A stretch of 64,000 nt of DNA from Galaxea fascicularis (Eukaryota > Cnidaria > Anthozoa > Scleractinia > Euphylliidae): NCBI GenBank assembly GCA_948470475.1, contig OX419346.1, positions 20,974,417 to 21,038,416 on the forward strand, read 5' to 3'. A program made the position numbers and the translations under genes. This document shows, piece by piece, positions 13,406 to 16,484 of this stretch. Positions within the stretch are counted from its first letter, which is position 1, and every line of letters begins with the position of its first letter. The notes under the pieces were generated by a model. The model saw nothing but the letters and a program-made list of their open reading frames with translations. It searched no databases and was not told the DNA's origin.

Positions 13406-15115
13406 ATGTCGAAGTTCAGTACAACCGTAATGGGTTGCAGTGGCAACATTGTGGTTGGAGATAATGCTGTTCTTACAATTGGAGCTTCACCTGAAGAAGG
13501 TAAGAGATCCTTTATATCGCCAAAAATTGATTTTGACAGGTATATTTCACTTCCGGATTTATCGAAGTAAACAGTCGTAAGACTTATTAGTAAATTCAAG
13601 TCTTCGACTTCCTTGATATTCTGCAATCCTGAGACCCACTTGGTCTCGCAAAACAAGAAAATGGGACTCCGAATGGCTTCGTGGAAACACCAAGACTGCG
13701 TTGTATATCCGTAACGCTCAAACCCAACCCTTTCAAGACGCGATGGATCCTGTCTTAATTGCTTCTCGAGTTTCACAGCTATCTCGAGTAGAGAATTTGC
13801 AGTTTATTAAAAGGCAAGGACGGCTAAATGATCTTATTTTTTTCTTGTGCTTTCTTCCTTTCGACTAGGTAGATAGTTCGTAACCAGTGTTTAAGTTTTC
13901 TATAGTCTTTTTTTGCGAATAAATGAAAAAAAAAAAAAGGAATGTGATGAACTTTCAATGCAGCCAAAAACGGGGTAGAAATTATTCAGTGCTATTCTAA
14001 AAATAGCTCGCGAGAGAAGGGGATTTTTTATGTTCATCCACTCTGAGAACCCTGATATGACAGAGTATTCACAGTTTGTTCTCTATTAGTTATGGATTGG
14101 GTAGTTCTAACTGACTGATAAAAGTGCATTATTTCTCATCAATACGTTTTCCCCATCGGGGTGGGGGGGGGGAGGGGTTGGAGTAGCATGGAAACAAACA
14201 GTGGTGTCAACAAGGGAGTGGGGATGGGGAAGGATTGTAAGTGAGAGTTTATTTGTCAGACCAGATAACAAAAATTATGTGGTTAAAACTGAACCTCCAA
14301 GAAGTCCAAAGGCCTGAGAAAAGTGCTTGATAAACATAATGGGCCAGTTAAACAAAGTTTACACAAGGTTTATCAAAAGCACAGTCCAACTACTTAACTT
14401 TTCAATCTGGGCAACTCAAACAGTTAGGCATTCTACATCACAATTGAAATCAAGCAGGCATATGTCACAGATTTCAAAAACATGGAAGAGGTCCATTACT
14501 TACCTTAAACCATGGTCAAAGTAAGACTTTTTTTAAATAATAGTTCCAATTTCTTTTTCCATTTTATTCATCTTAAGTAAAACAATGTTTTTCATATAAT
14601 TTTAGCAGCAGCAGCACAGCACAGTCGAGCTCCTCCAGAGGAGACACCAGCTACTGGAGCCAGTGGTAAGGGACATCCAGTCTAAGCTTACTTTCAGTTT
14701 CAAAGAGATTGATCAAGATATTGTTGGACTTCCTCACTTATCGTTGATGTTGCATGGAAATTATCGCAAAAATGTGGTCATGAATATCCTAACAATCTGC
14801 CAATTATTAGTTATGGAGTTTCCTTTTTTTCTCATCACGTATAAGCTTAGTAATGTGTTGATACTGTGCCTAAAAGAATAAGCCAATAACACAATATTAT
14901 TATGACTCAGTTGTGCTTTTTTAAGTTACTGCATAAGCATTAAGGACTTATCACCTCGGGGGGGAGGGGGGGACTCCCATATGGAACAGACGGGGATGGT
15001 CGTCGTCTCGCTTAGGGGTGTAAATTTTGGATTTTGGTCTCACTCGGGGTGGTCCGGGCAAAGCGCCAATATTTTAAGCCGCCAAGGTCTTGTGTAGGGT
15101 TCCGCGAAGAAACAA

Positions 15116-15150
<35 letters not shown>

Positions 15151-16484
15151 CTTTTAACTTGTGTTGTTTACCACATTACCTCTGTGATTATAAATCAAAG
15201 ATTTCTACAAATAGTAGAGAACATTATAATCTGATTAATCAGTGACAATAAAGGAAGCATTATTACAAGATGTCTTTGTGCTTTGTCTTTTGTTTGTCTA
15301 TAACAGGAAACTCAGCAGGTTTAGCGCTTACAAAATGCTAAAAATATCCGTGAGCTGGTTTCCCGTATTTGTGTGTTTTTAAGCGGTCTCTTTTAGGGGT
15401 CAAAATTTGCTTAAGCCACACCCAGATTGGTCTCCTTTAGGGGTCACAGAAAGCTTGAGCCACGCCCAGATGGTCTCCTTTAGGGGTTAATTTCAAAATT
15501 TCCGACAAGCATCCCCGTCTGATCCATATAGGAGTCCCCCCCCCCCCTCCCCCAGGCTTATCACCAAGAGAGAATTATCATGAGTATCTGCAGTATCACA
15601 GACTGGTACTGGAGCTGTAAGAAGAAATTACCACCAGTTGACCATTTCCTTTATTCTTATGACCTATCTTTTTGGCAGTACTTCAATCTTGTAAGGAGAA
15701 AGTCATTCATGGATCAATGTTTTCACTTGCAGAACAAGTACATTGCCAGGAATCTGCTGGTGATGGTATGAAGTACACAGCAAGAACTGGCTATGTCCTT
15801 ATTATCAACAACAATTTCTTCCCTTCAAGATCAGATTTTGAGCGCACTGGCTCAAATGATGATGTTAACAACCTAAGAAATCTATTTGATGACTTTGGCT
15901 TTAGAACCATGGTGTATGACAACCTAACCAAAACTGATATGTTGAATATATTGAAAGACACTGCAGAGAAAGACTTCTCCAGATATGACTGTTTTGTGTG
16001 TGTTATCCTGAGCCATGGATCAAAAGAAGGAATTTATGGAACAGATGAGCAAGTCATCAAGCCTGATGCCATTACATCTTTCTTCCGTCGTGATGAATGC
16101 CCCTCCTTAGAAGGGAAACCCAAAATATTTCTGGTTCAAGCTTGTCGTGGCAATCGACGTGATCAGGTACCCATTGAAAGCGACAGTGATCCTATCATGT
16201 TTTCCAACCCAGGTCTGCCAGCAGATGCTGATTTTCTTATCTGTTATGCTTCCTCGCCTGGTCATCAAAGCTACCGGCAGCCTTTAGTTGGTTCATGGTT
16301 CATATCAGCAGTGTTTCAAGTGTTCAAGGAATATGCAGACAGGGAGCATGTCATGGACATGATGTTGAGAGTCAACAACCAAGTGGCAAACCTGATCAGT
16401 GTTGAAGGTCTCAAGCAAATGCCATGTCAGATCTGCATGCTCACAAAAAAAGTATTTTTTGAACCCAGGTTCAATACATCTTGA
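13406..16484 (+). CDS. Executioner-type caspase with N-terminal RHIM-like motif
   Basis: Three exons: 13406-13499, 14606-14665 and 15679-16484, together 960 nt and 319 residues. All junctions are phase 1. Residues 82-319 form a full caspase unit in one exon. Arg107 and Gly109 fit the P1 pocket (RTGSNDD), His164 is in the SHG motif and Cys207 in QACRG (205-209). The p10 part has Tyr250-Arg251 and Gly256-Ser257-Trp258, as in caspase-3. Asp220 in an IESD sequence is a likely interdomain processing site. The prodomain has no DED or CARD. Instead residues 11-25 read CSGNIVVGDNAVLTI, very close to the RIP homotypic interaction motif of mammalian RIPK3. Residues 32-51 are an Ala/Pro-rich linker. RHIMs form amyloid-like hetero-oligomers that signal cell death and innate immunity, so this caspase may be activated by amyloid templating. 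A 602-bp transposon lies in intron 2. Confidence 0.88.
14956..15557. mobile_element. Non-autonomous DNA transposon, hAT-like, with 8-bp target duplication
   Basis: TTATCACC occurs at 14948-14955 and again at 15558-15565, directly flanking the element, as an 8-bp target site duplication. The ends are long inverted repeats: a G-run followed by GGACTCCCATATGG on the left, and CCATATAGGAGTCC followed by a C-run on the right, continuing inward to a shared CAGACGGGGATG core. The inside contains repeats of a GGTCTCCTTTAGGGGT unit (15388-15487) and no transposase. An 8-bp duplication is typical of hAT elements. It sits in caspase intron 2. Confidence 0.82.

What the first reader, a model, noticed from the sequence alone, without database searches (positions are those of the whole stretch)
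13406..16484. A caspase whose prodomain is a RHIM-like amyloid motif
The first exon encodes CSGNIVVGDNAVLTI at residues 11-25. Human RIPK3's RHIM core is CSGVQVGDNNYLT, from memory. C, S, G, V, G, D, N, L and T coincide after one insertion, including the central I/V-x-V-G tetrad. The usual Gln is Val. The motif is joined in phase to a complete caspase (His164, Cys207, QACRG, GSW). Animal caspases known to me use CARD, DED or no prodomain; a RHIM would link amyloid templating directly to a protease. In mammals RHIM kinases reach caspase-8 only through adaptors, so this would be a one-protein shortcut between necrosome-like amyloid and apoptosis.
Basis: partly seen in the sequence, partly recalled or inferred. 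Interest (0 to 1): 0.95.

Follow-up and report, generated by a model that had tools for sequence, protein, structure and literature searches.

The report
Self-cutting RHIM-like prodomain on coral caspase
A coral-type caspase gene begins with a short stretch, conserved from stony corals to a sea anemone, that resembles the RHIM amyloid motif of the human cell-death kinase RIPK3; it would likely let the enzyme molecules cluster and then cut themselves free.

Summary
Exons 13406-13499, 14606-14665 and 15733-16484 join in phase into a 301-aa caspase with CSGNIVVGDNAVLTI at residues 11-25. Seven other caspases carry the same N-terminus: Oculina, Montipora, Stylophora (two), Acropora, the anemone Exaiptasia, and one unnamed. 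A profile of those seven, without the window's sequence, ranks human RIPK3 RHIM first among 177,635 distinct PDB sequences, though weakly (E 0.039-0.058; next 1.3); one reversed and one column-shuffled profile do not find it. It is not a canonical RHIM: the tetrad Gln is gone in 8 of 8 and the following Asn in 7 of 8, and Pfam RHIM misses it. The Gln-to-Val change makes residues 16-19 VVGD, a V-x-x-D site; the coral VXXDase OfCasp3b loses its first 20 residues by cleavage after VIGD (PMC7586219). Best reading: a RHIM-like clustering prodomain with a release site through its core. Assembly is inferred, not shown; a plain self-removed propeptide is the main rival. The named paper searches showed no RHIM-type caspase.

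The parts
13406..13499 (+). Exon 1: prodomain residues 1-31 (first base of codon 32), phase-1 donor
   Evidence: same N-terminus in 7 relatives
13436..13480 (+). RHIM-like motif CSGNIVVGDNAVLTI, residues 11-25
   Evidence: sequence; profile rank against PDB; flank-shuffle test
13451..13462 (+). V16-V17-G18-D19, predicted V-x-x-D self-cleavage site overlapping the tetrad
   Evidence: Asp in 8 of 8, P4 Val in 7 of 8; OfCasp3b is cut after VIGD Asp20 (PMC7586219 section 5)
14606..14665 (+). Exon 2: Ala/Pro-rich linker, weakly conserved
15733..16484 (+). Exon 3: end of linker and complete caspase domain with stop codon
   Evidence: PF00656 E 1.5e-61; tblastn of four relatives
16014..16016 (+). Catalytic His146 codon (SHG)
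16143..16145 (+). Catalytic Cys189 codon (QACRG)
16173..16184 (+). I199-E200-S201-D202, predicted intersubunit cleavage site
   Evidence: OfCasp3b and PaCasp3 are cut after VESD in the intersubunit linker
14958..15550 (.). Element with 48-nt inverted ends inside intron 2 (not part of the mechanism)
   Evidence: pair I4

Best explanation
The window holds three predicted in-phase exons for a caspase-3-like protease whose first exon codes a 25-residue prodomain that is conserved from stony corals to a sea anemone and has the RIPK3 RHIM as its best-ranked match in the PDB; the prodomain is predicted to bring procaspases together by stacking and is likely cut through by the enzyme itself after V-V-G-D19. 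Shown: the reading frames and splice signals, the conservation, the ranking, the Asp in 8 of 8 members and a V-x-x-D tetrapeptide in 7 of 8 (V-x-G-D in 6 of 8). Shown by others for a coral caspase that is likely a relative (OfCasp3b): V-x-x-D specificity and removal of the first 20 residues after VIGD (Asp20). Inferred: that OfCasp3b belongs to this family (its sequence was not held here), and that the window protein is cut at the same place. Inferred: three short beta segments (around F4-V8-C11, I15-V17 and L23-I25) form a RHIM-like beta-arch that stacks between molecules. Inferred: stacking places caspase domains side by side so that they cleave each other at IESD202, and the active enzyme then cuts D19 in the middle of the stacked core, freeing itself and ending the assembly. 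The replacement of the RHIM Gln by Val would thus be what gives the site the P4 Val that a VXXDase needs.
For: Conservation in 8 sequences (7 plus the window), the 7 from at least five genera; Phe4 and Asp19 invariant; residues 4, 8, 15, 16, 17, 23 and 25 hydrophobic in 7 or 8 of 8. RIPK3 RHIM chains are the top 3 of 177,635 distinct PDB sequences with the full profile (E 0.17-0.25) and without the window's sequence (E 0.039-0.058, next 1.3); as a rough yardstick, a single-sequence search with the RIPK3 fragment finds the five RIPK1 sequences at E 0.0085-0.21. Reversed profile: best E 1.1, no RHIM among 5 hits; one column-shuffled profile: no hit to E 10. 0 of 20,000 shuffles of the RIPK3 fragment reach its score on either profile (about 16,000 reported a score); with VQVGD held fixed and only the flanks shuffled, again 0 of 20,000 on either, so the likeness is not only the cleavage motif. 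[quoted passage not shown] Insect cRHIMs without Gln (VHIG) still give thioflavin-positive aggregates in cells (PMC9531809, passages). AlphaFold2 of the Oculina relative: residues 1-66 below pLDDT 50 with no secondary structure, as for a free N-terminal motif (low-confidence model, 7 sequences).
Against: No E-value of a coral profile against RIPK3 passes 0.01. Single-sequence phmmer of the prodomain against PDB found nothing at E 10. Pfam RHIM reports none of the coral sequences given to it. Gln is absent in 8 of 8 and the RHIM Asn in 7 of 8. The coral profile disfavours the RHIM Gln where it stands: of the 60 orders of V, Q, V, G, D in the RIPK3 fragment, two score above the real one on A3 (QVVGD, VVQGD). 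The matched C, D and L-T are absent from RIPK1 as printed, and RIPK1 likeness is weak (150 and 897 of 20,000 shuffles). One member (P0034) has lost the Gly, and 4,950 of 10,000 shuffles match its score. The flanks are only moderately conserved: pair identity 0.39 (residues 2-14) and 0.41 (20-26) against 0.28 for residues 27-51, 0.44 for 52-66, 0.35 for the whole linker 27-66 and 0.67 for the caspase domain. Hydrophobic columns outside the cleavage site are 4 of 19, against 3 of 40 in the linker. A simple aggregation scale (values recalled) ranks the best window of the N-terminus only 29th of 295 in the protein. Published short-prodomain coral caspases eluted as dimers, probably after the self-processing in E. 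coli that the paper reports. No partner protein was found (5 candidates, none passing).
Confidence: 0.48

Rival explanations
1. The prodomain is a plain removable propeptide. The V-x-G-D is conserved because the VXXDase cuts there during maturation, and the RHIM likeness is a coincidence of a short hydrophobic stretch.
For: OfCasp3b is cut after VIGD Asp20; Asp invariant in 8 of 8, P4 Val in 7 of 8; the RHIM Gln and Asn are mostly missing and Pfam RHIM fails; RIPK1 likeness weak.
Against: Conservation runs outside the site: Phe4 8/8, Lys3 7/8, Val/Ile8 8/8, Leu/Val23 8/8, Ile/Val25 8/8. With the core held fixed, the flanks alone still set RIPK3 apart from 20,000 shuffles. PaCasp3 is cut after SSTD Asp31, so a coral short prodomain can also be removed at another site.
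Confidence: 0.34
2. The prodomain is a non-amyloid docking peptide: a beta-strand that binds an adaptor, an inhibitor or a groove on the caspase domain, and is removed on activation.
For: An N-terminal peptide bound in a hydrophobic pocket was seen in the coral PaCasp7a crystal structure (PMC7586219, passages); alternating conserved hydrophobic residues fit a strand.
Against: That peptide lies just after the CARD cleavage site, and the authors state that there is no such evidence for short-prodomain caspases. No docking partner is known to me. The best-ranked sequence match is a self-stacking motif.
Confidence: 0.13
3. Exon 1 does not belong to the caspase transcript, and the motif is a chance reading frame.
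For: No RNA-seq for the window's species; many of the 106 database entries viewed start inside the caspase exon.
Against: The same N-terminus is fused in phase to the same caspase in 7 proteins of several genera; canonical splice sites in matching phase. The truncated entries look like single-exon calls on unspliced DNA (inference).
Confidence: 0.02

Closest known systems
RIPK3 RHIM (human; Pfam PF12721)
   Same: Best-ranked PDB match of the coral profile; C-S-G, V-x-V-G-D and L-T in register; three short beta segments around a V-x-V-G core are inferred here and described for RIPK3 (S shape, PMC9444067, passages).
   Different: Gln in 8 of 8 and Asn in 7 of 8 replaced; N-terminal on a protease, not C-terminal on a kinase; contains a V-x-G-D site.
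Insect cRHIM (PGRP-LC, PGRP-LE, IMD)
   Same: V-x-[IV]-G core without the Gln in PGRP-LE and IMD (VHIG), yet thioflavin-positive aggregates (PMC9531809, passages).
   Different: Sits on receptors and an adaptor, not on a protease; sequences were not compared here.
Coral short-prodomain VXXDases OfCasp3b and PaCasp3
   Same: Caspase-3-like, short prodomain, VESD intersubunit site (IESD in the window); OfCasp3b prodomain removed after VIGD Asp20 (PMC7586219).
   Different: Authors describe only a 'short pro-domain'; 'RHIM' and 'amyloid' occur 0 times in the main text. Their sequences were not held here.
CARD, DED and DD caspases (cnidarian and other animal)
   Same: An N-terminal homotypic-interaction segment before a caspase domain (PMC4715348, PMC3196919, passages).
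   Different: Those are helical death-fold domains (recalled: about 90 residues); this is a 25-residue stretch with beta-type pattern.
Fungal PP and bacterial BASS3 amyloid signalling motifs
   Same: RHIM-related short motifs that switch on cell-death effectors by templating (PMC7889193, passages).
   Different: Adjacent NLR-effector gene pairs; no second copy of the coral motif in the 64-kb window.

Membership tests
RHIM | Core tetrad (V/I)-Q-(V/I/L/C)-G (PMC9444067) | tested here: not met
   IVVG in the window; Gln replaced by Val in 7 of 8 and Ala in 1 of 8 members.
RHIM | Asn three residues after the tetrad Gly (as printed for RIPK3 and RIPK1) | tested here: not met
   Asn in 1 of 8 (P0047); Ala or Ser in 7 of 8.
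RHIM | Match to Pfam RHIM PF12721 above its cut-off (20 bits) | tested here: not met
   RIPK3 fragment 39.6 bits; no RHIM match at E up to 10 for 4 prodomains alone, 8 full-length proteins or the window's two forms.
RHIM | Overall sequence likeness to known RHIMs above chance | tested here: inconclusive
   RIPK3 top-ranked but E 0.039-0.25; 0 of 20,000 shuffles; RIPK1 150 and 897 of 20,000.
RHIM | Forms amyloid and mediates homotypic signalling | not testable with these tools
   Needs fibril and cell assays.
Caspase (Peptidase_C14) | Catalytic domain with His/Cys dyad and QACRG | tested here: met
   PF00656 208.5 bits; His146, Cys189.
Caspase (Peptidase_C14) | Closest solved relatives are executioner caspases | tested here: met
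   Caspase-3 (also named apopain) and caspase-7 chains fill the 60 rows shown of 227 hits, best E 1.7e-47.
Coral short-prodomain VXXDase (OfCasp3b type) | V-x-x-D about 20 residues from the start and an [VI]ESD intersubunit site | tested here: met
   VVGD at 16-19 and IESD at 199-202 in the window. In the family the Asp is at 18-21 in 8 of 8 (P0005 counted from its inner Met); the tetrapeptide is V-x-G-D in 6, VVSD in P0034 and AIGD in P0007.
Coral short-prodomain VXXDase (OfCasp3b type) | Measured V-x-x-D specificity and self-removal of the prodomain | not testable with these tools
   Published for OfCasp3b only as to a VIGD site.
CARD/DED/DD caspase | Death-fold domain before the caspase | tested here: not met
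   Only PF00656 found in the full-length protein at E up to 10; residues 1-68 alone give no hit.

The most novel reading that the evidence does not exclude
Hexacorals own a caspase that switches itself on by stacking its N-terminus into a RHIM-type functional amyloid, with no kinase or death-domain adaptor, and then dissolves that amyloid by cutting through the tetrad. The RHIM Gln has been traded for a Val that turns the amyloid core into the enzyme's own V-x-x-D substrate.
Probability: 0.38. Interest if true: 0.92.

Novelty: new variant of a known kind. Interest (0 to 1): 0.72.

Why it matters
Caspase prodomains described in the passages I saw are death folds, dsRNA-binding domains or featureless short stretches. 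A RHIM-like prodomain of beta type, conserved from corals to an anemone, would be a further way to gather procaspases, and would put an amyloid-type motif directly on an apoptotic protease in animals in which RIPK1 homologues were not found (PMC12119088, passages). [quoted passage not shown] A cleavage site inside the motif would explain why recombinant enzyme, which loses these residues, did not show assembly. The idea is testable with a 30-residue peptide and a few point mutants.

Tried and rejected
Pfam RHIM: no coral hit. Second motif in the window: 2,105 six-frame ORFs of 20 aa or more scanned, only exon 1 hit (1.3e-19), next 0.87. Second caspase in the window: tblastn with five queries gave nothing better than E 0.15 outside this gene. 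Neighbours: of 46 ORFs of 110 aa or more listed, I gave 8 to Pfam; 3 matched (queuosine salvage; Bmt2-like; Amnionless, below its cut-off), 5 matched nothing at E 0.01, and no known immune sensor domain appeared. Non-caspase proteins with the motif: a chimeric 745-aa query scored on residues 1-40 gave 5 candidates, none at E up to 10; this search is insensitive and is no evidence of absence. Alignment search for more members: 335 hits, 120 listed, 24 of them new, no new bearer of the prodomain among the 130 proteins fetched in all; 18 of 130 reach 60 aa or more upstream of the caspase start, 7 of these carry it. Aggregation scale with recalled values: not discriminating, the RIPK3 fragment itself scores only 0.44 against 0.58 for the window's N-terminus. 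AlphaFold2 model too weak for a fold search, so none was run. Two column shuffles were printed; one was searched. Own-genome search did not complete. Kajava 2014, the paper on RHIM evolution, is not held and is known to me only from citations.

Literature: no RHIM or amyloid-motif caspase seen in the listings of searches (CC-licensed PMC only; one search was on insect cRHIM). Passages were seen of PMC12119088, PMC9342958, PMC12881547, PMC7586219, PMC4715348, PMC7889193, PMC9444067, PMC12261475, PMC9531809, PMC3196919 and PMC7836458; only section 5 of PMC7586219 was read whole.

Full report
What is there. The plus strand holds a three-exon gene: 13406-13499, 14606-14665, 15733-16484. The exons join in phase into 301 residues with one Pfam domain, Peptidase_C14, at residues 71-293 (E 1.5e-61), His146 in SHG, Cys189 in QACRG, and GSW. 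The closest solved structures by sequence are executioner caspases-3 and -7. The best-scoring protein relative is from the coral Oculina patagonica (69% identity over 99% of the query).

The N-terminus is a conserved family. Of 130 proteins fetched in two searches, 7 carry the same N-terminus: Oculina patagonica, Montipora capricornis, Stylophora pistillata (two), Acropora muricata, Exaiptasia diaphana and one unnamed source. Many others start inside the caspase exon and say nothing either way; 18 of 130 reach at least 60 residues upstream of the caspase start. In the 8 sequences Phe4 and Asp19 are invariant; residues 4, 8, 15, 16, 17, 23 and 25 are hydrophobic in at least 7 of 8. Mean pair identity is 0.46 for residues 2-26, 0.35 for the linker 27-66 (0.28 for 27-51, 0.44 for 52-66) and 0.67 for the caspase domain. 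The prodomain is thus kept somewhat better than the linker and less well than the protease.

Is it like a RHIM? I built a profile from the 8 prodomains and searched 177,635 distinct PDB sequences: the three best are the RIPK3 RHIM chains, in the RHIM register (E 0.17-0.25). As a rough yardstick, a single-sequence search with the RIPK3 fragment finds RIPK1 sequences at E 0.0085-0.21. A reversed profile finds no RHIM (best 1.1) and one column-shuffled profile finds nothing. None of 20,000 shuffles of the RIPK3 fragment reaches its score on either profile (about 16,000 reported a score); nor does any of 20,000 in which VQVGD is held and only the flanks are shuffled. So the resemblance is real in rank and is not only the core, but by E-value it stays weak. 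Against it: among the 60 orders of the core letters, two beat the real VQVGD on profile A3, because the profile does not want Gln there.

Is it a RHIM? By the definition in print, no. The core (V/I)-Q-(V/I/L/C)-G (PMC9444067, passages) is not met: Gln is Val in 7 and Ala in 1 of 8. The Asn three residues after the Gly is kept in 1 of 8. Pfam RHIM finds the RIPK3 fragment at 3.2e-10 and none of the coral sequences given to it. RIPK1 resembles the coral profile weakly (150 of 20,000 shuffles reach it on A3, 897 of 20,000 on A2). Against a RIPK3+RIPK1 mini-profile, between 3 and 65 of 10,000 shuffles reach the score of 7 of the 8 coral prodomains, but 4,950 of 10,000 reach that of P0034. Loss of the Gln need not end function: insect cRHIMs reading VHIG still give thioflavin-positive aggregates (PMC9531809, passages). 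I call it RHIM-like.

The cleavage site. PMC7586219 (section 5 read whole) reports that the coral caspases OfCasp3b and PaCasp3 are VXXDases with short prodomains, cut in the intersubunit linker after VESD, and that the first 20 residues of OfCasp3b are removed after VIGD (Asp20), while PaCasp3 is cut after SSTD (Asp31). In this family the invariant Asp lies 18-21 residues from the Met (P0005 counted from its inner Met); the tetrapeptide is V-x-G-D in 6 of 8, VVSD in P0034 and AIGD in P0007. The window has IESD at 199-202. OfCasp3b is therefore very likely a family member, although I could not obtain its sequence. The Val that replaces the RHIM Gln is the P4 residue of this site. That paper does not use the words RHIM or amyloid in its main text.

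Mechanism. I favour a RHIM-like beta-arch that stacks procaspases, brings the protease domains together, and is then cut in its middle by the active enzyme, which frees the enzyme and ends the stack. Shown here: sequence, conservation, ranking, site. Shown by others in a likely relative: cleavage and specificity. Inferred: stacking, induced proximity, and disassembly. The strongest rival is a plain propeptide whose only conserved task is to be cut. Against that rival stand the conserved Phe4, Val/Ile8, Leu/Val23 and Ile/Val25 and the flank-shuffle test; for it stand the missing Gln and Asn and the weak E-values. An AlphaFold2 model of the Oculina relative leaves residues 1-66 without structure (pLDDT below 50), which fits a free motif but is a weak model (mean 51.8).

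Novelty. In the listings of my searches (CC-licensed PMC only) I saw no caspase with a RHIM or other amyloid motif. The surveys of amphioxus, bivalve and Acropora caspases hold 0 occurrences of 'RHIM' in their main texts. Kajava 2014 was not held, so an earlier mention there cannot be excluded.

Limits. No transcript of the window's species, no other part of its genome (own-genome search unanswered six times), no partner protein, no biochemical data on this protein.

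Noticed in passing
window 14958-15550: Intron 2 holds an element with 48-nt inverted ends, 88% complementary (I4), like a small non-autonomous transposon.
   Followed up: partly
window 16627-16871 and 17779-18025: Two palindromic elements of about 245 bases, with ends about 91% complementary and related to each other, lie just downstream of the caspase (I5 and I7).
   Followed up: partly
   Followed up: no
P0004 (Oculina patagonica): A close caspase relative has a quite different N-terminus of about 95 residues with no Pfam match at E 0.01; prodomain exchange or a faulty gene model.
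   Followed up: partly
window 30490-31203 (+): ORF matching queuosine salvage protein (PF10343, E 1.3e-86).
   Followed up: no
window 37423-38172 (+): ORF weakly matching Bmt2-type methyltransferase (PF11968, E 1.5e-4).
   Followed up: no
window 13390-13803 (-): A 137-aa open frame runs antisense across exon 1; no evidence that it is a gene.
   Followed up: no
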